The notes below the pieces were generated by a model. That model ran no database searches. It was not told the origin of the DNA and was given only the letters and a program-made list of their open reading frames with translations. The translations under genes and the position numbers were made by a program. From Polaromonas sp. CF318 (GTDB taxonomy: Bacteria > Pseudomonadota > Gammaproteobacteria > Burkholderiales > Burkholderiaceae_C), in assembly GCF_000282655.1 (NCBI RefSeq), contig NZ_AKIV01000060.1, positions 1-64,000 of the forward strand: a DNA stretch of 64,000 nt, read 5' to 3'. Below, one piece after another: positions 29,646 through 37,843 of the stretch (position 1 is the first letter of the stretch; every line of letters begins with the position of its first letter).

Positions 29646-31661
29646 TTATTTGACGGCGGCCGCCGGAATACGCGACCCGGCGCTGGAGGCGGCGGCCTGT
29701 TTCAGGATCGCCGCGCAGTTTTCGTCCTGGCCCGGCCCGGTTTCTATGGTGGCGGCCAGTGCCAGCAAGGGATTGACCACACCCAGCGCGAGCGCGATGC
29801 CGGCGCGACCGGCCAGCGCGCCCTTGTCGGGACCTGCCGACGGGGCCGCGAAAGTGCCGCCGATTTTTAGGGGCGAGCGCAAGCTCAGGATGCTGCGGTC
29901 CTTGGGTGCCGGCTCCAGGACCAGGTCCAGGGTTTCATCGGCCAGGCTGATGTTGCCACGTCCGTTGATCACCGTGTCCGAGGTGTCGAGCACGATGGTC
30001 TTGCTGCTCATCAGTCCCTGCTTGACCTCAAAGGCGGCAGCCGCGCAGCGCAGCTGCACATTGCGGTCGCCGCGCACCAGGAACTTGATGATCTCGCCGC
30101 CGTCCAGGCCCATGAACTCGAGCAGGATGTTGCTGATCTGGCCCTTGCCCATCAGGACGGCCACATCGCCCGAAGACGTGCCCAGCATTTGCGCCAGCGA
30201 ATTGCCGCGTCCCTTGAGGTCGAGCTGGCCGCTCATTTTTCCCAGGCTGCTTTTGGTGGTTTCCACCGCGGGGAAGAGCTGGTTGAGCTGCACGCCGCGC
30301 AGGTCCAGCCGGGCCGCAAAAATCGCCGGCACCACATTGGAATCTATGCGTATGGCGCCGGCCACCGTGCCCCCCGCGATGCCCATCGATATCGGCTCGA
30401 GTTGCAGGGCGCCGCCTGTCAGCTTGACGTGGACGCTGCCCTTGTCCAGCGGCAACACCTGCACATGCCGGATGTCGGCCGCCGAATACACCACGTCGGC
30501 GTTCATGGCCTTGAGCCGGGTGACATCCAGTGTTGCCACGGGCAAGACCTTTCGCGATGCGCGATCCGGTTTGCTGCTTTTCGCCGGCGCGGGTTCATCC
30601 CCGGCTTGGGTAGTCGCCGCCTTCACGGGGGTGGGCCCCGCCGGCGCAGGCAATCCGATCACCGGCGCCAGGTCGGCGAAGTCCAGCAGTTTGGACTGCA
30701 CCTTGCCGGTCAGCAAGGGCACCGGCGCGGACTGGTCGAAATTCAGCGCACCGCTGAGGTCCGAGCTGCCCAGGCGGCCCTGGATCTGGCTAGCGGCCCA
30801 GACCTTGCCGTGCCTGGCGAGTTTGCCGCGCAGTTTGTAAGGCGGCGTGGACGGCAGCACCACGCCCAGCAGCTTGTAGAGTTCCTCGAGGTTGCGGCCC
30901 TGCAGGTCAAAGCTGGCATCCACCCCCGCAAGGTCCGCCAGGTTGGCGATGCTGCCCTTGGCCTTCAGGCTGGTCCTGCCGGCCACCGCATTCACCTCGA
31001 TGGGAAAAGGCGCTTCAAGGTCCTTGCTCAGCTGCAGCACGCCGCCGGTGCGCCCATGGGCGCTGAAGGCTTCGTTTTGCCATTTGCCCGTCGCCTTGTA
31101 GGTGAGGGGCAACTGACCCGTAGCTTCCTGTGCAAGCGAAAAATCCACATGGATGTTGGCGCCCTGCGCCGCCGCCTGGTAGTCCACGCTACCGCCGTCG
31201 ATCAGCAAGGCATCGATGCGCGGAATGGCGCCCTCATCGGAGGTGTCGCGCGCCAGCGCCCAGGTCCGGCGCCCATCGGGCTCCATCTGCAGCCCTATTT
31301 CCGGCGCCGTCAGCGCGATGCGCGGCAACACGACCTTGCCCACCAACAGCGGCAGCAACCTGATGTCGAATTCGGCCGCCTCCGCCTTGACCAGGTAAGG
31401 CTTGCTGGCCCACTCGGGATTGGCAAACTCGACACCGTCGGCCCTGACCGTGACGGTGCGCCCCAGGTGCACCGACAGATGCCGGGTGATTTCAAAGCGC
31501 CGGCCCAGCTGGTCGGAGACATGGCGGTTGATGGGGCCGCGCAGCATATCCCAGGGGAAAAACACCAGTACCAGCACCAGGGCAAGCAGCACGGCGCCTA
31601 TAGCGGCAAGCCACCTTCGCCAGAGGACCGGCGCGGACTGTGGGGTATTCATGGGTGGCAT
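29646..31661 (-). CDS. AsmA-family protein
   Basis: This 671-residue protein has a single N-terminal membrane anchor (about residues 15-35) followed by a long periplasmic beta-rich part typical of AsmA: FFPWDMLRGPINRHVSDQLGRRF at the start (only the first part being the anchor end) and repeated short beta segments to GTSSGDVAVLMGKGQISN near residue 510. AsmA-like proteins are now linked to lipid transport between the two membranes. A low-complexity, alanine/proline/lysine-rich linker near residues 330-365 splits the domain. The gene is convergent with moeB. Its start lies next to the only long non-coding stretch of the window. Confidence 0.88.
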   Translation of the reverse strand: MPPMNTPQSAPVLWRRWLAAIGAVLLALVLVLVFFPWDMLRGPINRHVSDQLGRRFEITRHLSVHLGRTVTVRADGVEFANPEWASKPYLVKAEAAEFDIRLLPLLVGKVVLPRIALTAPEIGLQMEPDGRRTWALARDTSDEGAIPRIDALLIDGGSVDYQAAAQGANIHVDFSLAQEATGQLPLTYKATGKWQNEAFSAHGRTGGVLQLSKDLEAPFPIEVNAVAGRTSLKAKGSIANLADLAGVDASFDLQGRNLEELYKLLGVVLPSTPPYKLRGKLARHGKVWAASQIQGRLGSSDLSGALNFDQSAPVPLLTGKVQSKLLDFADLAPVIGLPAPAGPTPVKAATTQAGDEPAPAKSSKPDRASRKVLPVATLDVTRLKAMNADVVYSAADIRHVQVLPLDKGSVHVKLTGGALQLEPISMGIAGGTVAGAIRIDSNVVPAIFAARLDLRGVQLNQLFPAVETTKSSLGKMSGQLDLKGRGNSLAQMLGTSSGDVAVLMGKGQISNILLEFMGLDGGEIIKFLVRGDRNVQLRCAAAAFEVKQGLMSSKTIVLDTSDTVINGRGNISLADETLDLVLEPAPKDRSILSLRSPLKIGGTFAAPSAGPDKGALAGRAGIALALGVVNPLLALAATIETGPGQDENCAAILKQAAASSAGSRIPAAAVK

Positions 31662-32073
31662 GGAGGATCAGGCCTGCATCAGGAAAGCGCAAGGCACCAG
31701 GTTCGCCGCACAGTGGCCGGGAAGGCGCTGGAAGCACTGGCTAGCATGCGTTTGTCTCCCTGCGTTGTGGTGCCATGCCTGCGCCTGCAAGGGCGCGGGG
31801 CTCCGTTTAGCCCTGCATTCCACTATCGGCCGGATCGCCGCATGGGGCAGTCGGCAGGCACCATGACACACTGTGAGCATGTGCCTACAGCCCGCGTAGT
31901 GTGGCTGAGATGCACACGCAACGCAGCCGTAGGTGGCCTCCTACAAGTGCTGGCCTTGGCCGCTGGCAGAATGGGCCCAGGTTAAAGATACATTAGGAAA
32001 CAAGAGACATTCGCATTTTTGGGACTTTCGTAATACTTCGAAAGCCACGCGGCCTCCTACCTGGACCTGAGCA
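31662..32073. other. 412-nt intergenic region with CCTAC elements
   Basis: No gene is supported in this stretch between the AsmA gene (minus) and the receiver gene (plus). It holds three CCTAC elements: CCTACAG at 31884-31890, GTAGG-N6-CCTAC as a perfect dyad at 31929-31944, and GGCCTCCTAC at 32051-32060. The last shares ten identical bases with 31935-31944. It probably contains the promoters of both flanking genes; no clear -35/-10 pair was seen. Confidence 0.6.
31929..31944. promoter_or_regulatory. Inverted repeat GTAGG-N6-CCTAC, possible operator
   Basis: A perfect 5-bp dyad with a 6-nt spacer lies 130 nt before the start of the receiver gene. Its size suits a dimeric helix-turn-helix regulator such as the LuxR-type protein encoded at 32457. 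The core TCCTAC recurs near other genes of the locus (34602, 37976). Confidence 0.35.
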
Positions 32074-32454
32074 GTGAGACTGAAAACGTACATCGTAGAA
32101 GACAATCCGACCATTCGCGAAAATCTGATTGGGACGCTGGAGGAGTTGGCACGCATTGATGCCGTGGGAACCGCAGACACCGAAAACGAAGGCAAGGCCT
32201 GGCTGGCGGAGAACAGCGAGGACTGGGACCTGGCGATTGTTGACCTGTTTCTCAAACAGGGAAGCGGCCTGGGGGTGCTGGCCGCCTGCAGGGACCGCCC
32301 TTCGCGGCAGAAAGTCGTGGTCTTGAGCAACTATGCCACCGCCGACATTCGCCAGCGCTGCACGCAACTCGGCGTCGACGCAGTCTTCGACAAATCCAAC
32401 GAGATCGACGCCCTGGTGGACTATTGCATCCAGCAGAGCGCCGCCGCCGATTGA
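32074..32454 (+). CDS. Single-domain (receiver-only) response regulator
   Basis: This 126-residue protein is a bare CheY-like receiver. The acidic pair is E9/D10 (VEDN), the phospho-accepting aspartate is D57 (LAIVDLFL), the switch serine is S85 (VVVLSNYA), and the conserved lysine is K107 (VFDKSNE), so all key positions are filled. It starts with GTG at 32074; no better start is present. It has no output domain and must act through a partner, for instance by competing for the kinase at 33216 or binding the regulator at 32457. It lies tail to tail with that regulator, only 2 nt apart. Confidence 0.9.
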   Translation: MRLKTYIVEDNPTIRENLIGTLEELARIDAVGTADTENEGKAWLAENSEDWDLAIVDLFLKQGSGLGVLAACRDRPSRQKVVVLSNYATADIRQRCTQLGVDAVFDKSNEIDALVDYCIQQSAAAD

Positions 32455-32456
32455 AC

Positions 32457-33089
32457 TCAATCAATCAGCTTGTTCTTGAGCGCGTAGTAAGTCAGGTCGC
32501 TGTTCGAGGAAAGGCTCATCTTCTCCATCACACGGGTACGGTAGGTGCTCACCGTTTTCACGCTCAGCGACAACGCCTTGGCGATGTCGCCCGCCGTCTC
32601 GCCTTTTGCCAGTTTGAGGAACACCTGGAACTCCCGCTCGGACAGCTGCTCGTGGGAGGCAACGTCATTGGGCCGGTTCAGCTGCTGAGCCAGCAACTCC
32701 GCCACCGCCGGGGTGATGTAGCGCTTGCCCAGCGAGATCACGCGGATCGCGTCGACAATTTCGGAAGGGTCGCACTCCTTGTTGAGGTAGCCGCTGGCGC
32801 CCTGGCGGATCAGGTTGACCGCATAGTGCTCCTCGGGATAGCCGCTGAGAATGAGAATGCCGACATCGGGCGCCTTCGCGCGGATCATGGCCAGCGCGTC
32901 AATGCCGCTTTGGCCCGGCATGGACAAATCCATGACGAGGATGTCGAGTTCGACATTGCGAACCAGGTCAATGGCCTCGCGGCCGCTGCCGGCCTCGCCG
33001 ACAACGCGCAAGTCGACCTGGTCCGAGAAAAACTGCTTGAGCCCCGAACGCACAATGGCGTGGTCGTCCACAATTCCGATTTTGATCAT
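32457..33089 (-). CDS. NarL/FixJ-type response regulator
   Basis: This 210-residue regulator has a receiver domain (VDDH near residues 8-11, phospho-aspartate in ILVMDLSMPG at about residue 54, lysine in YLNKEC) and a C-terminal LuxR-type helix-turn-helix (LSEREFQVFLKLAKGETAGDIAKAL followed by SLSVKTVSTYRTRVMEKM, here in two pieces). It is divergent from the CHASE3 histidine kinase across 126 nt, so the two form a natural two-component pair. Likely targets are the flanking stress genes, whose upstream regions share a TCCTAC element; this is an inference. Confidence 0.95.
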   Translation of the reverse strand: MIKIGIVDDHAIVRSGLKQFFSDQVDLRVVGEAGSGREAIDLVRNVELDILVMDLSMPGQSGIDALAMIRAKAPDVGILILSGYPEEHYAVNLIRQGASGYLNKECDPSEIVDAIRVISLGKRYITPAVAELLAQQLNRPNDVASHEQLSEREFQVFLKLAKGETAGDIAKALSLSVKTVSTYRTRVMEKMSLSSNSDLTYYALKNKLID

Positions 33090-33203
33090 GTCGCTGTCTT
33101 CCTATAAAGCTGCAAGCCGGCAACGCCGTGAAAAGAGCCTTGAACTGGCGCCTGCTTTAATTTTCAGCACCCATTATTGACGAATTCTTCACCGAAGTAC
33201 CAA

Positions 33204-33209
33204 ACGGAG
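33204..33209 (+). promoter_or_regulatory. Shine-Dalgarno that fixes the kinase start
   Basis: ACGGAG lies 6 nt before a GTG at 33216. This makes GTG the likely start of the histidine kinase, in place of a TTG at 33177 that has no such leader. Confidence 0.6.
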
Positions 33210-33215
33210 TTTGCC

Positions 33216-34556
33216 GTGAAAGCATTTGCGATACCCAGAATGGCCATCAGCCTGCCTTTGGCGGTGCTGGCCGCCGCCTTCCTCATCTTCATCAATGAGG
33301 CGAGTTTCCGCAAGTCTACCGAAGCGGCGGCCAGCATTGAAGAGGCGCAGCAGACCCGCGGCGCCATCAACAAGCTTCTGCAGCATATGCTGGACGCGGA
33401 AACCGGCCAGCGGGGCTACCTGCTGACGGGGGACGCGCGCTACCTGGAGCCCTACAACGCCGCGCTGGCCGACATCGACCACAACCTGGACACGCTGCGC
33501 CAGCTGTTCACGCCCTACCGGGAACAGCTCGCGGAGTTCGGCCAGATGTCGCGGCACGTTTCCCGCAAGCTGGCCGAAATGGACCTGAGCGTTCGCATGC
33601 GCAAGGAGGGCAATGAGGACGCCTGGAAGTTCGTGCTGACCACGGACGTCGGCAAGGAACACATGGAGGCCATCCGCGAGCAGTCCGCTAGGCTGGCCGC
33701 CGGCAGCGTCAGCAAAATGGAGCAGGGGCAGGACCAGATCCGGCGCTCGCTGCAGCTGTCGCGCATCGGGGTAGCCACCGTGGCGCTGGCGGGCTTGCTG
33801 GCCTTCTACATGTACCTGCTGCAGACCAAGGCCTTGCTGGCCTCCGGCCGGCGCGAGCAGGAATCCCTGCAGCGCGAACGCGACTTCCTCGAGGTGCAGG
33901 TGCGTGAACGCACCGCCAACCTGGCCGAGCTGGCCACCCACCTGCAGAATGTGCGCGAGGACGAACGCGGCCACCTGGCTCGCGAACTGCACGACGAGCT
34001 GGGCGCGCTGCTGACCGCGGCCAAGCTCGACGTGGCGCGTTTGAAGTCGCGCCTGGCGGGCAGCATGCCGGAAGCGGTGGAGAGGCTCACGCACCTGACC
34101 AACACGCTCAACAGCGGCATCGCACTCAAGCGGCGCATCGTGGAAGATTTGCGCCCGTCCTCGCTGTCACACCTGGGCCTGGTGGCCTCGCTGGAAATCC
34201 TGGGGCGGGAGTTCGAGGAACGCTCGGGCCTGACCATCACCACCGACCTGGAGCCCGTCGAGCTCGGCGGTTCCGCGCAGCTGACCGTCTACCGCCTGGT
34301 GCAGGAGTCGCTGACCAACATCGGCAAATACGCGGAAGCCAAGCAGGCCGAGATCAGCCTGCATAACTTCGACAGCTACATCACCGTCGAGGTCAAGGAC
34401 AACGGCAAGGGTTTCAAGGTCGGCAGCGTGGGCGCGGGAAGCCATGGGCTGGCCGGCATGCGGCATCGCGTGGAAGCGGCGGGCGGCCGCCTCACCGTCA
34501 CCAGCGCCGAAGGTGAGGGTACGCGCATTTCCGCGGTGCTGCCGAAGACGCGTTGA
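33216..34556 (+). CDS. CHASE3-domain sensor histidine kinase (HisKA_3 type)
   Basis: This 446-residue inner-membrane kinase has a first membrane helix ([18 protein letters not shown]), an extracytoplasmic CHASE3 sensor (about residues 30-165, with QRGYLLTGDARYLEPY), a second helix (VATVALAGLLAFYMYLL), a coiled coil, and a HisKA_3 dimerisation domain with the phospho-histidine in LARELHDELGALL. The ATPase domain has the N-box VQESLTNIGKYA, the G1 box VKDNGKGF and a GSHGLAGMRHR G2 region. HisKA_3 kinases pair with NarL-type regulators, which fits the divergent gene at 32457. The GTG start at 33216 is supported by a good Shine-Dalgarno. Confidence 0.94.
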   Translation: MKAFAIPRMAISLPLAVLAAAFLIFINEASFRKSTEAAASIEEAQQTRGAINKLLQHMLDAETGQRGYLLTGDARYLEPYNAALADIDHNLDTLRQLFTPYREQLAEFGQMSRHVSRKLAEMDLSVRMRKEGNEDAWKFVLTTDVGKEHMEAIREQSARLAAGSVSKMEQGQDQIRRSLQLSRIGVATVALAGLLAFYMYLLQTKALLASGRREQESLQRERDFLEVQVRERTANLAELATHLQNVREDERGHLARELHDELGALLTAAKLDVARLKSRLAGSMPEAVERLTHLTNTLNSGIALKRRIVEDLRPSSLSHLGLVASLEILGREFEERSGLTITTDLEPVELGGSAQLTVYRLVQESLTNIGKYAEAKQAEISLHNFDSYITVEVKDNGKGFKVGSVGAGSHGLAGMRHRVEAAGGRLTVTSAEGEGTRISAVLPKTR

Positions 34557-34601
34557 CATGCGCGCGCGCCTCGCGAACGGCGTAACAAAATGTCGGCCCC
34601 C

Positions 34602-34607
34602 TCCTAC
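34602..34607 (+). promoter_or_regulatory. TCCTAC element upstream of DUF1328 gene
   Basis: TCCTAC lies in a CCCTCCTACAGGG context and ends exactly 133 nt before the DUF1328 start codon. The same hexamer is at the same distance from the second BON gene. It may be a regulator-binding site. Confidence 0.35.
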
Positions 34608-34727
34608 AGGGCGTGGCCATTCGAACTGACACAGGCACACGTCCGCAGCCGATGAGACCATCCCGGGACGTTCTCTAAGCTTGGCTCAAGGCCGCTTCAA
34701 TCGAAGCATGGGCCATCCACCCGGAGC

Positions 34728-34733
34728 AAGGAG
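34728..34733 (+). promoter_or_regulatory. Strong Shine-Dalgarno of DUF1328 gene
   Basis: AAGGAG stands six nt before the ATG at 34740 and supports translation of the 54-residue frame. Confidence 0.7.
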
Positions 34734-34739
34734 CCTCAG

Positions 34740-34904
34740 ATGTTGCACTATTCCGTCGTTTTTCTCGTGATCGCGCTGATCGCCGCCGTGTTCGGTTTCG
34801 GCGGCATCGCGGCCGGCGCCGTCGAGATCGCCAAGATCCTGTTTTTCATTTTTGCCGTGATGGCCGTCGTCAGTTTTGTCATCAGCCTGCTGCGCAAGAA
34901 CTGA
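34740..34904 (+). CDS. DUF1328 small membrane protein (YtjA-like)
   Basis: This 54-residue protein begins [20 protein letters not shown] and has two hydrophobic helices separated by a short [11 protein letters not shown] turn, ending in LLRKN. This is the DUF1328/YtjA pattern, a family of tiny inner-membrane proteins of unknown role that are often induced by stress. An AAGGAG Shine-Dalgarno six nt upstream and a terminator 35 nt after the stop support a real, separately transcribed gene. It comes after the kinase gene, 183 nt away, and probably has its own promoter in that gap. Confidence 0.9.
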
Positions 34905-34938
34905 CAGCCCCGCCTTTCGCCGAAGGCCTCCCGCATGA

Positions 34939-34970
34939 GCCGCGTCACCCGGTGACCCGGCTTTTATTTT
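34939..34970 (+). terminator. Intrinsic terminator after DUF1328 gene
   Basis: A stem made of GCCG...CGGC and TCACC...GGTGA with a single-base apex offset (34939-34961) is followed by TTTTATTTT. It separates the DUF1328 gene from the DUF883 operon. Confidence 0.65.
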
Positions 34971-35013
34971 CCCTTCTTCTTTTCAATGCTCCCTCAACCC
35001 ACCAAGGACCGCC

Positions 35014-35400
35014 ATGACCCCCCAGACCGCCACCAACACCGCACGCCAAGCCTCCGATGAGCTGCTGCAGACCGCCGAGAAAACCGTGGCCAGCACCCGC
35101 AGCTATGCCAACGAGGCCCTCGACAAGGCCGAAAGCAAGGTACGCGACCTGCGAGGCAGCGTCGACCCCGTGGTCGACATGCTGGCCTCCAAGGCCCAGC
35201 ACCTGGCGCGCCAGAGCCTGGACATCGCCGCCGAAGCCAAGGACCGCGCGCAGCGCTCGCTGTCCAACGCGACGGCCGCCACCTCGCGCTATGTCGCCGA
35301 CCAGCCCCTGCGCTCCGTGCTGATCGCCGCGGCCGTGGGCGCGGGCGTCGCGCTGCTGATTTCCTCGGCACGCCACCACCGCCAGCAGAACCGCTACTGA
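35014..35400 (+). CDS. DUF883 family protein (YqjD/ElaB-like)
   Basis: This 128-residue protein has a long amphipathic, alanine/lysine/glutamate-rich helix (about residues 10-95) and a C-terminal membrane helix (VLIAAAVGAGVALLISSA) followed by a short basic tail. This is the DUF883/YqjD architecture; E. coli YqjD and ElaB are stationary-phase inner-membrane proteins that can bind ribosomes. It is the first of four closely spaced genes (35014-36836), which suggests a single operon, and is followed by a YqjE-like gene, as in enterobacteria. Confidence 0.85.
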   Translation: MTPQTATNTARQASDELLQTAEKTVASTRSYANEALDKAESKVRDLRGSVDPVVDMLASKAQHLARQSLDIAAEAKDRAQRSLSNATAATSRYVADQPLRSVLIAAAVGAGVALLISSARHHRQQNRY

Positions 35401-35435
35401 GCCACCGCGACAGAGACCACCAAGACCACTCCGCC

Positions 35436-35801
35436 ATGCTCCATCCCCTTTTTTCCACCATCGTGCAGCGGCCCGACCTGGTCGTGGATCACCTGTCGGC
35501 CTATGCGGCGCTGTTCCAGGAAGAAGCTTCCGAGGCCAGCGCCGAATTGCTGGCGCGCGTGGTGGCCTGGGCCGCGGCGATTGTGGCGGCCGCGGTCTTC
35601 CTGGGCCTGGCCGGTACCGCCGTGATGCTGGGAATGCTGCACAACCAGTTCCATTGGGCGCTGGTGGTGGTGCCGGGCATCGCGCTGGCCATCCTGGTGC
35701 TGGCCATGCTGCGGGCGCGCAAGCCTTTCGCCGCGGAACGCTTTCCCGAACTGAAGGCGCAGATCGACAGTGACGCCCGTGCCTTGCGCATGGCCGCCTG
35801 A
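35436..35801 (+). CDS. Phage holin family / YqjE-like membrane protein
   Basis: This 121-residue protein has two membrane helices (WAAAIVAAAVFLGLAGTAVML and ALVVVPGIALAILVLAML) flanked by charged helices, matching the phage-holin-like/YqjE families. Its partner YqjD-like gene lies 35 nt upstream and no phage gene is near, so a role as a cellular stress-linked membrane protein is more likely than lysis. The function is unknown. An unrecognised gene begins 22 nt downstream. Confidence 0.78.
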   Translation: MLHPLFSTIVQRPDLVVDHLSAYAALFQEEASEASAELLARVVAWAAAIVAAAVFLGLAGTAVMLGMLHNQFHWALVVVPGIALAILVLAMLRARKPFAAERFPELKAQIDSDARALRMAA

Positions 35802-35823
35802 ACAGCGTCACCCATACCGCGCC

Positions 35824-36279
35824 ATGACATCCCTCGCTCAACTCACCCAGCCCACGCCGCAGGAAAGGCTGGCCAGCAGCCGCAAGGCCATCGTCAGGCA
35901 CATGAGCCGCGACAAGCTGTCCCATGACGAGCCGGAACAGTCCGCGCGGCACGGTGATGAAGGCCCGTCGCATGCCGAAGGCGGCAGTTGGGGCTTCATC
36001 AAACACGCACTGGGCGCCTGGTGGCAGCACCACCCCGTGAGCGCCGCACTCAACCTGGTACGGCCCGTGCTCGGGGAGTACGCCAGGGAAAAACCGCTGC
36101 AGTTGCTGGGCATCGCCGCCTTGGCGGGCGCCGCGGCCGTGGCTTTCAAGCCCTGGCGGCTGGTATCCCTGGGCAGCGTGCTGCTGGCCACGCTCAAGTC
36201 GTCGGAGATCTCCGGTGCCCTGCTGTCCATGCTTTCCCGTCCGGCGCAGGACAACGAGCAGACGCAAAGGACACCATGA
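35824..36279 (+). CDS. Conserved-looking protein of unknown function in YqjDE-type operon
   Basis: I do not recognise this 151-residue protein. Its first ~75 residues are hydrophilic (RKAIVRHMSRDKLSHDEPEQ is representative). A tryptophan-containing segment (ALGAWWQHHPVSAALNLV) and two moderately hydrophobic helices follow (LQLLGIAALAGAAAVAF and LVSLGSVLLATL), with a polar tail at the end. It therefore probably sits in the inner membrane with a cytoplasmic N-terminus. It overlaps the ferritin-like gene by 4 nt (ATGA) and follows the holin-like gene by 22 nt, so it is in the same operon. It occupies the place of yqjK in enterobacteria, but I see no YqjK resemblance that I would defend. Confidence 0.75.
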   Translation: MTSLAQLTQPTPQERLASSRKAIVRHMSRDKLSHDEPEQSARHGDEGPSHAEGGSWGFIKHALGAWWQHHPVSAALNLVRPVLGEYAREKPLQLLGIAALAGAAAVAFKPWRLVSLGSVLLATLKSSEISGALLSMLSRPAQDNEQTQRTP

Positions 36280-36836
36280 ACACGCCCGTCATTTCCAAAC
36301 GCCCTACCGCAACTTCCGGCGAACTGGTGCTTGACGAAACCGGCCTGGATGCGGCCCGCAAGAGCCTGGCCGACGGCGCCATCACACCGGCCTACGGTCC
36401 GCACCGCGACGCCATCGTGAAGCTGCTCAACGACGCCCTCGCGACGGAACTGGTCTGTGTGCTGCGCTACAAGCGCCACTATTTCATGGCCGGCGGCCTG
36501 TCCTCACCCGCCATCGCGGATGAATTCCTGGTGCACGCGAATGAGGAATCCGGGCACGCGGACCGCATCGCCCGGCGCATCGTGCAACTGGGCGGCGAGC
36601 CCGATTTTTCACCCGGCACGCTGCAGCAGCGCAGCCATGCCGACTACGACGAATCCAACGACCTCAAGACCATGGTGCGCGTCAACCTGGTCGCCGAGCG
36701 CATCGCGGTGGAGATCTACCGCCAGATGATCGCGCTGATCGGCGACAAGGACCCGACGACGCGGCGCATGCTCGAGGACGTTCTTGCCGACGAGGAAGAA
36801 CATGCCGACGAACTCAAGGACTGGCTCGAAAAATAA
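36276..36836 (+). CDS. Ferritin-like (bacterioferritin-type) protein
   Basis: This 186-residue protein has a ferritin-like four-helix bundle. Candidate iron ligands are in ATELVCVLRYKRHYF, ANEESGHADRIARRI (ExxH), VAERIAVEIYRQM and DEEEHADELKDWL (ExxH). A 45-residue N-terminal extension precedes the bundle, longer than in classical bacterioferritin. A heme-ligand methionine is not obvious. It likely oxidises or stores iron, or protects DNA during oxidative stress. It is the last gene of the DUF883-holin-unknown operon, overlaps its upstream neighbour by 4 nt, and is followed by a terminator. Confidence 0.85.
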   Translation: MNTPVISKRPTATSGELVLDETGLDAARKSLADGAITPAYGPHRDAIVKLLNDALATELVCVLRYKRHYFMAGGLSSPAIADEFLVHANEESGHADRIARRIVQLGGEPDFSPGTLQQRSHADYDESNDLKTMVRVNLVAERIAVEIYRQMIALIGDKDPTTRRMLEDVLADEEEHADELKDWLEK

Positions 36837-36849
36837 ACCATGACCGCAG

Positions 36850-36886
36850 GCCTGTGGGCGTGGTGCCGTTCACAGGCAGGCTTTTT
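36850..36886 (+). terminator. Intrinsic terminator after ferritin-like gene
   Basis: A 7-bp stem (GCCTGTG with CACAGGC) and a 14-nt loop are followed by AGG and a CTTTTTC tract. It ends the operon that began at 35014. Confidence 0.55.
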
Positions 36887-36930
36887 CAACCCTGCACCAA
36901 AACCATGAAATCAACACAAGAGGAAACAAT

Positions 36931-37245
36931 ATGAAATACGCTCGCGCAATTGCATTCGCCGCCCTGGCAGGCATCACCATCATTGGCAGCGGCTGCGCTG
37001 TCGGGCGTGGCCAGGAAACTGCCGGCGCCTATGTCGACGACGCCGCCATCACAACGTCCGTGAAGGCGAAATTCGTCGAGGACAAAACCGTGGCGGCCAC
37101 CTCCATCAAGGTGGAAACGCTCAACGGCACCGTCCAGCTGTCCGGCTTCGCCAAATCCGCCGCGGAAAAGGCCCAGGCTGAAAACATCGCCCGCAACGTG
37201 AAGAACGTCAAGGCTGTTCGCAACGACATCGTCGTTCGCCCGTAA
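36931..37245 (+). CDS. BON-domain lipoprotein
   Basis: This 104-residue protein has a lipoprotein signal ending in the lipobox IGSGC at about residue 22 and one BON domain (VDDAAITTSVKAKFVEDKTV...LNGTVQLSGFAKS...NVKAVRNDI). BON domains bind phospholipid surfaces and are found in osmotic-stress proteins such as OsmY. A good AGAGGA Shine-Dalgarno precedes the ATG. It has its own likely promoter after the ferritin terminator and converges with the other BON gene on a shared bidirectional terminator. Confidence 0.9.
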   Translation: MKYARAIAFAALAGITIIGSGCAVGRGQETAGAYVDDAAITTSVKAKFVEDKTVAATSIKVETLNGTVQLSGFAKSAAEKAQAENIARNVKNVKAVRNDIVVRP

Positions 37246-37279
37246 ACGGTCAGGCCCTATGCCACCGCAAGGTGGCTGG

Positions 37280-37315
37280 AAAAGGCAGGCATGGGATTCC
37301 CGTGGCCTGCCTTTT
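37280..37315. terminator. Bidirectional terminator between two BON genes
   Basis: A perfect 11-bp inverted repeat (AAAAGGCAGGC with GCCTGCCTTTT, 14-nt loop) gives a U-tail on both strands and lies between the convergent BON genes. Confidence 0.8.
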
Positions 37316-37336
37316 GCACGTCCGGGCTCGCGGCCT

Positions 37337-37843
37337 CTAGCCGGCAGCCTTGACTTCAAGTTTGTTGTCCACCGATTTGACGCCTTTGACCGCCTTGGCC
37401 AGCTCGGCGGCCTTGTCGCGGGCGGCCGTCGTGGGCGCGGAGCCCTTGAGGATCACTGCGCCGTCACGGGTGTCCACATTGATCTTGAGCACGCTCAGGT
37501 CGGGGTCCTTCGCGAAGCCCGCGGTGACGGTGGTGGTGATGGTGAGGTCGTCGATTTTTTCACCGGCCTTGGCGGCCATGTCCTTGCCGGAAGACTCGGC
37601 GCTCTGGGTCGCGTTTTTCACTGCGGCGCCGGCACTGGCCATCTCGCTCTCGGCCTTGGCTTTGGCCCTGGCCGCGGCGTCTTCGGTTTTCGCAATGGCC
37701 GAGTCGAGTTGCTGGCCGGCTGTTTTGCCCTCGTCCTGCTTGTTGCAGGCCGACAGGGCCAGCGCCAGGGATGCCGCGACCAGGACGGCCAGCGGACGCA
37801 GGGCATGGCTCGCATGCGAGGGATTCAAGAGGGTGGGAATCAT
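37337..37843 (-). CDS. BON-domain lipoprotein with alanine-rich linker
   Basis: This 168-residue protein has a lipoprotein signal (hydrophobic helix PLAVLVAASLALALSAC with the lipobox LSAC), an alanine/lysine-rich, probably helical linker of ~50 residues and a C-terminal BON domain (DDLTITTTVTAGFAKDPDLSVL...DGAVILKGSAPT...VKSVDNKLEV). It shares the BON family with the convergent gene at 36931 but is not a close copy. The probable role is in the envelope stress response. A TCCTAC element lies 133 nt upstream of its start. Confidence 0.88.
   Translation of the reverse strand: MIPTLLNPSHASHALRPLAVLVAASLALALSACNKQDEGKTAGQQLDSAIAKTEDAAARAKAKAESEMASAGAAVKNATQSAESSGKDMAAKAGEKIDDLTITTTVTAGFAKDPDLSVLKINVDTRDGAVILKGSAPTTAARDKAAELAKAVKGVKSVDNKLEVKAAG

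What the first reader, a model, noticed from the sequence alone, without database searches (positions are those of the whole stretch)
32074..37843. Kinase/regulator locus coupled to a string of small envelope and iron-stress genes
Twelve bases to six kilobases hold a receiver-only regulator, a NarL-type regulator, a CHASE3 HisKA_3 kinase, then DUF1328, DUF883/YqjD-like, YqjE/holin-like, an unrecognised membrane protein, a ferritin-like protein and two BON lipoproteins. The sequence shows close spacing, ATGA overlaps and terminators at unit ends. Family knowledge links YqjD, BON/OsmY-like and ferritin-like proteins to stationary-phase, osmotic or oxidative stress. My inference is that the two-component pair governs these genes as one envelope-stress programme. 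The combination with a second, output-less receiver is the part I have not seen described.
Basis: partly seen in the sequence, partly recalled or inferred. Interest (0 to 1): 0.62.

Follow-up and report, generated by a model that had tools for sequence, protein, structure and literature searches.

The report
Stress two-component locus with RNA pseudoknot
In Polaromonas and related soil and water bacteria, a sensor-regulator pair, a bare receiver protein and a set of small envelope and stress genes tend to stay together and share a DNA control box, and in many of them one small gene also carries an RNA knot in front of it that is not in the RNA family catalogue, so the locus looks like a real stress circuit that can now be tested.

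Summary
The inference that the two-component pair governs the small genes is well supported by comparison, not proven. Regulator and DUF1328 co-occur across 150 family genomes (72 both, 8 and 9 alone, 61 neither), and linkage persists in loci whose flanking genes differ. An 18-bp inverted-repeat box laid out like the GacA/UvrY box (TGTVRG-N6-CCTACA) lies about 150 bp upstream of the bare receiver and of whichever small gene comes first. In 60 loci not used for training it precedes the receiver in 34 of 47, the first small gene in 32 of 46 and later small genes in 0 of 111; DUF1328 loci of genomes lacking the regulator score in 1 of 11. BON2 is not supported as a member; the ferritin gene is optional. 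I read this as a GacA-like envelope-stress circuit with a self-induced receiver. Receiver role, signal, direction of control and RNA function are inferred.

The parts
31872..31889 (+). GacA-like box 1 (distal), upstream of the receiver gene (and of the divergent AsmA-like gene)
   Evidence: TGTGAGCATGTGCCTACA, PWM score 21.4; an equivalent second site is seen in most genus loci
31928..31945 (+). GacA-like box 2 (proximal), 146 bp upstream of the receiver start
   Evidence: CGTAGGTGGCCTCCTACA, PWM score 19.2
32074..32454 (+). receiver-only response regulator (REC)
   Evidence: Pfam Response_reg 51.9 bits, no output domain; E9, D10, D57, K107 in 81 of 81, position 85 S in 72 and T in 9
32457..33089 (-). 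NarL/GacA-like response regulator
   Evidence: Pfam Response_reg + GerE; best NCBIfam model UvrY/SirA/GacA 181.8 bits, below its cut-off 280; 93-100% identical in the genus loci
33177..34556 (+). CHASE3-HisKA_3-HATPase sensor kinase, divergent from the regulator (start codon uncertain)
   Evidence: Pfam; divergent in 34 of 35 genus and 43 of 43 family/order loci (76% group) that hold it
34591..34608 (+). GacA-like box 3, 149 bp upstream of DUF1328
   Evidence: TGTCGGCCCCCTCCTACA, PWM score 22.2
34740..34904 (+). DUF1328 small membrane protein, first gene of the small-gene unit
   Evidence: Pfam PF07043 55 bits
35014..35400 (+). YqjD-like (DUF883_C) protein
   Evidence: PF19029 26.8 bits, just under the cut-off of 27
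35436..35801 (+). YqjE/holin-like membrane protein
   Evidence: PF07332 20.6 bits, below cut-off; position as PA3041 in PA3040-3042
35824..36279 (+). unrecognised protein; family with WW..HP..RPWR and a DUF883_C-like glycine zipper
   Evidence: no Pfam match alone; profile-profile match to the YqjD alignment over 29 columns, probability 94%; 13 of 22 members match DUF883_C at E<=1, best 5.7e-6
36276..36836 (+). Dps-like/ferritin-like protein (optional member)
   Evidence: Pfam Ferritin 97.6 bits; solved Dps-like protein 8w1d 208.9 bits; present in 13 of 35 genus loci
36850..36899 (+). H-type RNA pseudoknot upstream of BON1: P1 36850-36856/36871-36877, P2 36861-36866/36894-36899
   Evidence: P1 7 of 7 pairs with two-sided changes; P2 96.7% paired in 47 sequences; no Rfam match
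36931..37245 (+). BON1, OsmY-like BON-domain protein
   Evidence: Pfam BON 71.7 bits; OsmY model 68.6 bits, below its cut-off 174
37337..37843 (-). BON2 lipoprotein, convergent neighbour; membership not supported
   Evidence: Pfam BON 68 bits; box upstream in 0 of 26 genus loci

Best explanation
The locus is one regulatory unit. A CHASE3 kinase senses an extracytoplasmic cue and phosphorylates the GacA/UvrY-like regulator (inferred from the divergent pair). The phosphorylated dimer binds 18-bp inverted-repeat boxes about 150 bp upstream of two transcription units, the bare receiver and the DUF1328-YqjD-YqjE-unknown-(ferritin)-BON1 genes (box positions shown; binding and activation inferred). 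The induced receiver keeps every phosphorylation residue (shown) and probably takes phosphoryl groups from the kinase as negative feedback, or passes them on (inferred). The small products sit in or on the inner membrane or envelope and prepare cells for envelope, osmotic or stationary-phase stress (from family knowledge). The last gene, BON1, has an extra control layer in many members: its mRNA carries an H-type pseudoknot just upstream of the ribosome-binding site (fold supported by covariation; effect on BON1 inferred).
For: Gene order kept in the 35 genus loci fetched and, in whole or part, in most of 45 family/order loci. Genome co-occurrence 72/8/9/61, odds ratio 61. Box in 60 loci not used for training: 91 hits at score 14 or more against 4 in one Markov control; receiver 34/47, first small gene 32/46, later small genes 0/111, kinase 2/54, regulator 4/60, ThiF 0/33, CtpA 1/32. 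The box follows the first gene when DUF1328 is missing (YqjD in L077, L079, L099, L108, L109; BON1 in L103). DUF1328 loci of genomes without the regulator: 1/11. Receiver residues 81/81. Named Variovorax: regulator, kinase, receiver and YqjD in 9 of 9 loci, a box in 9 of 9. Pseudoknot. Published parallels: 18-nt UvrY site far upstream of its promoter; PA3040-3042, a YqjD-YqjE-unknown operon induced by envelope stress and stationary phase.
Against: No binding or expression data. Ten of the 60 outside loci hold the kinase with no small gene detected (L107, L110, L114, L115, L117, L121, L122, L127, L129, L130; L107 and L117 are cut by contig ends), and four hold the regulator alone (L084, L113, L119, L126). 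Eight genomes have the regulator without DUF1328 and nine the reverse. The regulator-kinase intergenic region rarely has a box (genus 0 of 35 before the regulator, 1 of 35 before the kinase), so the pair does not look self-regulated. In 14 of 46 outside loci the first small gene has no box at this threshold. One genome without the regulator has box-like sites before both DUF1328 copies (G176: 14.1 and 10.5). Box positions could belong to another GacA-like regulator. The pseudoknot was not found in 20 of 67 BON1 upstream windows, and in none of the 9 Variovorax loci. P1 has more A-C than G-U cells in the larger alignment (25 against 19), so wobble pairs point to the sense strand only for P2.
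Confidence: 0.7

Rival explanations
1. Neighbourhood only: the two-component pair and the small genes sit together through chromosomal synteny and are controlled separately (for example by RpoS or an ECF sigma factor).
For: Left-flank genes CtpA and ThiF are kept in 33 of 45 family/order loci, and in 9 named Variovorax loci DUF429 on the right is kept too. YtjA, a DUF1328 protein, is listed as under sigma-S in Salmonella, and PA3040-3042 is AlgU-controlled.
Against: In the 45 loci right-flank NUC and DUF429 are seen in 3 and 4 while DUF1328, YqjD and BON1 are seen in 31-35 (about 7.4 kb fetched on that side). Co-occurrence 72/8/9/61. Shared box before the receiver and the first small gene, not before later ones.
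Confidence: 0.13
2. The boxes are read by another GacA-like regulator, and the local pair acts elsewhere.
For: Almost no box in the regulator-kinase intergenic region. The box resembles the general GacA/UvrY site. G176, without a regulator match at E<=1e-80, has box-like sites before DUF1328.
Against: Box presence mostly follows the regulator: 1 of 11 DUF1328 loci in genomes without it. The regulator's best NCBIfam model is UvrY/SirA/GacA, and only one match at E<=1e-80 exists in the own genome.
Confidence: 0.13
3. The receiver is an activating phosphorelay hub, like MrrA of Caulobacter, and not a feedback sink.
For: MrrA is a single-domain response regulator essential for stress-response activation (abstract). 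A second CHASE3 kinase (57% identity) lies elsewhere in the genome without the other locus genes beside it.
Against: No search for a phosphotransfer protein was made. Being a box target itself fits feedback at least as well.
Confidence: 0.3
4. The element before BON1 is only a terminator of the upstream genes.
For: In the window, P1 plus T-run scores as terminator-like.
Against: The T-run is weak or absent in several loci of other genera while P1 pairing and the near-invariant GGUGC/GCACC pairing stay. The element ends 31 nt before the BON1 start codon, leaving little room for a promoter behind it.
Confidence: 0.15

Closest known systems
GacS/GacA, BarA/UvrY (-SirA)
   Same: NarL-type regulator closest to UvrY/GacA among NCBIfam models; 18-bp inverted repeat with N6 centre placed far upstream
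   Different: Below the model's cut-off (181.8 of 280); box ends CCTACA, not CTTACA; adjacent kinase is CHASE3-HisKA_3 without receiver or HPt match; predicted targets are protein genes next door; csrB-type sRNAs were not searched for
PA3040-3042 operon of Pseudomonas aeruginosa (PMC11302039, passages read)
   Same: YqjD-like, YqjE-like and an unrecognised protein in this order; envelope stress and stationary phase
   Different: AlgU-controlled there; here DUF1328 precedes, BON1 (and sometimes a Dps-like gene) follows, and a two-component system with its own box is attached; homology of PA3042 to the unknown protein not tested
Single-domain response regulators of the alphaproteobacterial general stress response (MrrA, LovR; PMC5964349, abstract read)
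   Same: Receiver proteins tied to a stress pathway
   Different: PhyR/EcfG were not seen in the locus; here the receiver gene itself carries the box
H-type pseudoknot cis-regulatory RNAs (for example small riboswitches; recalled)
   Same: Two crossing short stems just upstream of a ribosome-binding site
   Different: No Rfam family matches; strong matches only before this BON gene in 120 family genomes; ligand, if any, unknown

Membership tests
GacA/UvrY response regulators | receiver plus GerE/LuxR output | tested here: met
GacA/UvrY response regulators | score above the NCBIfam UvrY/SirA/GacA cut-off (280 bits) | tested here: not met
   181.8 bits; so filed as GacA-like, not GacA
GacA/UvrY response regulators | 18-bp TGTAAG-N6-CTTACA site | tested here: inconclusive
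   same length and N6 centre, but consensus TGTVRG-N6-CCTACA; binding not shown
GacA/UvrY response regulators | tripartite hybrid BarA/GacS kinase as partner (recalled) | tested here: not met
   adjacent kinase has CHASE3, HisKA_3, HATPase only
GacA/UvrY response regulators | csrB/rsmZ-type sRNA targets | not tested
   no whole-genome search for csrB-type genes was made
Single-domain response regulators | receiver domain only, with acidic pair, phosphoacceptor Asp, S/T and Lys | tested here: met
PA3040-3042-type operon | YqjD-like, YqjE-like, unknown in order | tested here: met
   (YqjD and YqjE by weak Pfam matches)
PA3040-3042-type operon | third protein homologous to PA3042 | not tested
   PA3042 sequence not fetched
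Known Rfam RNA family (for the BON1 leader) | match at gathering score | tested here: not met
   0 matches in 7 loci at gathering; nothing near threshold in the window; 6 hits at E<=1 in 6 further loci, none reaching its gathering score

The most novel reading that the evidence does not exclude
A two-layer stress circuit not described in the literature searched: a GacA-like system whose box-controlled receiver feeds back on its own kinase, plus a new class of H-type pseudoknot leader that senses a condition or ligand and sets the output of the last gene (BON1) independently of the rest of the operon.
Probability: 0.35. Interest if true: 0.75.

Novelty: new variant of a known kind. Interest (0 to 1): 0.6.

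Why it matters
It turns a string of poorly understood small genes (DUF1328, DUF883, YqjE-like, BON) into a predicted regulon with a candidate regulator, a predicted binding site and a feedback candidate, in environmental bacteria (Polaromonas, Ramlibacter, Variovorax). No such circuit appeared in my literature searches. The pseudoknot is a compact, directly testable candidate RNA regulator upstream of an OsmY-like gene.

Tried and rejected
Whole-genome regulon: exact boxes are few per genome (2 to 10 matches counted by strand in 7 genomes of the genus; controls 0 to 3). One site before a multi-HAMP protein is shared with a near relative (L134, L293). Another site is shared (L133, L290), but the small gene behind it in L133, which has no Pfam family, was not found in L290. 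No wider common regulon was established. sigma-70 promoters: none found. Terminators at unit ends: not above chance. RNAalifold alone predicts only P2 as a nested fold; P1 rests on covariation counts. CsrA-site reading of the leader: looked at by eye, not consistent across genera, dropped. Kinase on plasmids: one distant record, 46% identity. Literature: nine searches listed no paper that described this locus, box or RNA as far as titles, abstract beginnings and the passages read show; the library lacks most subscription papers. Structure prediction and fold search were not used.
Full report
OBSERVATION. All ten genes are present at the stated places. The only ATGA overlap is between the unrecognised gene and the ferritin-like gene. 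Terminator-like sites number 4 against 6.7 expected, and no sigma-70 consensus promoter was found. BON2 is convergent. The window's genome is 5.0 Mb in 159 contigs, and named neighbours with near-identical regulators place it in Polaromonas.

CONSERVATION. With the kinase as query, 54 of 61 genomes of the genus (own included) have a match; I count 47 near-orthologous places there and fetched 35 of them, own included. In these 35 loci: receiver 35, regulator 35, kinase 35, DUF1328 31, YqjD 34, YqjE 32, unknown 32, ferritin 13, BON1 32, BON2 26 (some contigs end inside the locus). Flanking genes are kept too, so genus synteny alone proves little. With the regulator as query, 80 of 150 family genomes (E<=1e-80) and 19 of 200 order genomes (E<=1e-70) match. 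I fetched all 45 further places at 76% identity or more (L073-L117) and 15 of 59 at lower identity (56-74%, L118-L132). In the 45: receiver 39 (convergent with the regulator in 39 of 39), kinase 43 (divergent in 43 of 43), DUF1328 31, YqjD 35, YqjE 18, unknown 18, ferritin 9, BON1 31, BON2 11, but right-flank NUC 3 and DUF429 4; left-flank CtpA and ThiF 33 each. In the 15: receiver 8, kinase 11, DUF1328 8, YqjD 5, BON1 4. The right side was fetched to about 7.4 kb from the regulator (three loci less); in the genus 56 of 57 NUC and DUF429 places fall within that reach, so some loss may still be a matter of reach. No flank gene was detected on either side, and a core of the unit stays, in L083, L087, L100, L112, L116, L118, L124 and L128; some of these lack single members (L116 has no receiver). 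Against: ten of the 60 have the kinase and no small gene detected, four the regulator alone (listed under evidence against). The regulator is 93-100% identical in the 35 genus loci, the kinase 67-87% outside own and nearest relative. Among the 80 named loci, 9 Variovorax loci all hold receiver, regulator, kinase, YqjD and ferritin, and 5 Ramlibacter loci hold the kinase in 4 and YqjD in 5; DUF429 is kept in the 9 Variovorax loci (that count does not tell BON1 from BON2).

CO-VARIATION. DUF1328 is found in 81 of 150 family genomes. Against the regulator set: both 72, regulator only 8, DUF1328 only 9, neither 61; Fisher p 3.5e-23, odds ratio 61, not corrected for relatedness. In 57 of the 72 a DUF1328 copy lies within 3 kb of the regulator homologue; that is 58 of 129 DUF1328 copies. 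The unknown protein's family matches 6 of 200 order-sample genomes at E<=1e-4; the four above 100 bits (own, G078, G246, G327) all carry it in the regulator locus, the other two are weak (26-28 bits).

THE BOX. Aligned upstream regions showed a shared 18-bp inverted repeat. A weight matrix was trained on 91 sites picked in genus loci by similarity to the consensus, so genus counts are circular. In the 60 other loci (59 outside the genus; L073 inside) it gives 91 hits at score 14 or more in 757 kb against 4 in one Markov-1 control. By position, within 330 bp upstream (150 bp for later small genes): receiver 34 of 47, first small gene 32 of 46, later small genes 0 of 111, kinase 2 of 54, regulator 4 of 60, CtpA 1 of 32, ThiF 0 of 33, BON2 2 of 14, ferritin 1 of 13. 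AsmA scores (29 of 29 in the genus, 5 of 12 outside) where it shares the intergenic region with the receiver. Where DUF1328 was not detected the box lies before YqjD (L077, L079, L099, L108, L109) or BON1 (L103). In the 64-kb window only the three locus sites reach 14. Control: I fetched 11 of the 12 DUF1328 places of the nine genomes without the regulator; 1 of 11 reaches 14 (L298, 14.1, with CCTACA on the reverse strand; L299 of the same genome scores 10.5). Of 59 DUF1328 copies in regulator-bearing genomes but away from the regulator I fetched 9; 1 of 9 reaches 14, and 6 of 9 have as best upstream site one that ends CCTACA or CCTACG about 100 to 140 bp upstream, which could be trans control (this last remark is after the fact). 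UvrY binds an 18-nt palindrome far upstream of csrB/C when phosphorylated (PMC4682653, passages); the GacA box is TGTAAGN6CTTACA (PMC8523701, passages).

THE RECEIVER. E9, D10, D57 and K107 are invariant in 81 of 81 receivers, position 85 is S (72) or T (9). It is therefore likely phosphorylated. As a box target it fits feedback; a relay role as for MrrA (PMC5964349, abstract) is the main alternative.

THE RNA. Upstream of BON1 lies an element with two crossing stems. On a plain MAFFT alignment of 25 sequences, P1 has two-sided changes in 7 of 7 pairs and 85.2% of cells paired, P2 97.3%; overall 90.9% paired against 25-43% when partners are slid, and 0 of 500 shuffles reach the covariation score. 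On 47 sequences aligned to the P1 model (P2 not used as structure in the fit): P1 83.7%, P2 96.7%. RNAalifold alone chooses P2. G-U exceeds A-C in P2 (14 to 2) but not in P1 of the larger alignment (19 to 25; in the smaller 13 to 8). The model finds 47 places in 92 sources (25 of them are training sequences); each lies in one of the 67 BON1 upstream windows, 30 of 32 in the genus and 17 of 35 in L073-L132. In 78 of the 80 named loci it gives 48 matches, two of them under 20 bits, mostly in genomes of the genus already sampled; none in the 9 Variovorax loci. In 120 family genomes, 72 have a match at E<=0.01; every match below 1e-9 (11 genomes) lies before BON1; of 30 fetched places, 12 have BON1 and the other 18, all weak, have none of the locus genes within about 1.5 kb. 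Rfam: nothing. P2 ends 31 nt before the BON1 start codon and P1 begins 13 nt after the ferritin stop, so BON1 translation control, transcript processing or attenuation are all possible; I favour translation control.

THE SMALL PROTEINS. The unknown protein is a family with WW, HP and RPWR motifs and a stretch like the DUF883_C glycine zipper. The ferritin-like protein is closest to a solved Dps-like protein, and E58, E91/H94, E141 and E173/H176 are kept in at least 97% of 25 members. PA3040-3042 of P. aeruginosa has YqjD, YqjE and an unknown protein, is AlgU-controlled and is induced by envelope stress, phage exposure and stationary phase (PMC11302039, passages). A CsbD/DUF1328/BON cluster is more expressed in an antimonite-resistant Achromobacter mutant (PMC11719878, passage), and YtjA (DUF1328) is in a table of sigma-S controlled small coding RNAs of Salmonella (PMC5437024, passage).

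VERDICT. Coupling of the pair to the small genes is strongly suggested by comparative evidence. Direction of control, receiver role, signal and RNA function are inferred. Nine searches of an open-licence library listed no description.

Noticed in passing
L070 (own genome, contig C104), L069, L071: A second CHASE3/HisKA_3 kinase, 57-58% identical to the window kinase, with no receiver, regulator or small genes of this locus detected in the fetched stretch (next to metK in L069, near groEL in L070, where it lies at a contig end); it could feed the bare receiver.
   Followed up: partly
L134 (own genome C43:80328) and L293: A box of the same type about 150 bp before a multi-HAMP protein, with an identical site in a near relative: a possible further regulon member.
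   Followed up: partly
L291 (relative G043): Four boxes in a row upstream of a gene that looks by eye like an exported glycosyl hydrolase.
   Followed up: no
L133/L290, L138: Boxes roughly 150-170 bp before a small gene without Pfam family (L133; the box but not the gene was found in L290) and before a transglycosylase/penicillin-binding gene (L138).
   Followed up: partly
window 29646-31661: An AsmA-like gene (label by eye) is divergent from the receiver and shares its two boxes, so it may be co-controlled in the genus.
   Followed up: no
window 32457-33089: The regulator is unusually conserved (93-100% in the genus loci) compared with the kinase (67-87%), which suggests constraint beyond this locus.
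   Followed up: no
L306, L307, L308, L309, L311, L312: Second DUF1328 copies away from the locus carry sites ending CCTACA/CCTACG about 100 to 140 bp upstream (6 of 9 examined); among 11 copies in genomes without the regulator one (L298) has such a site, on the reverse strand.
   Followed up: partly
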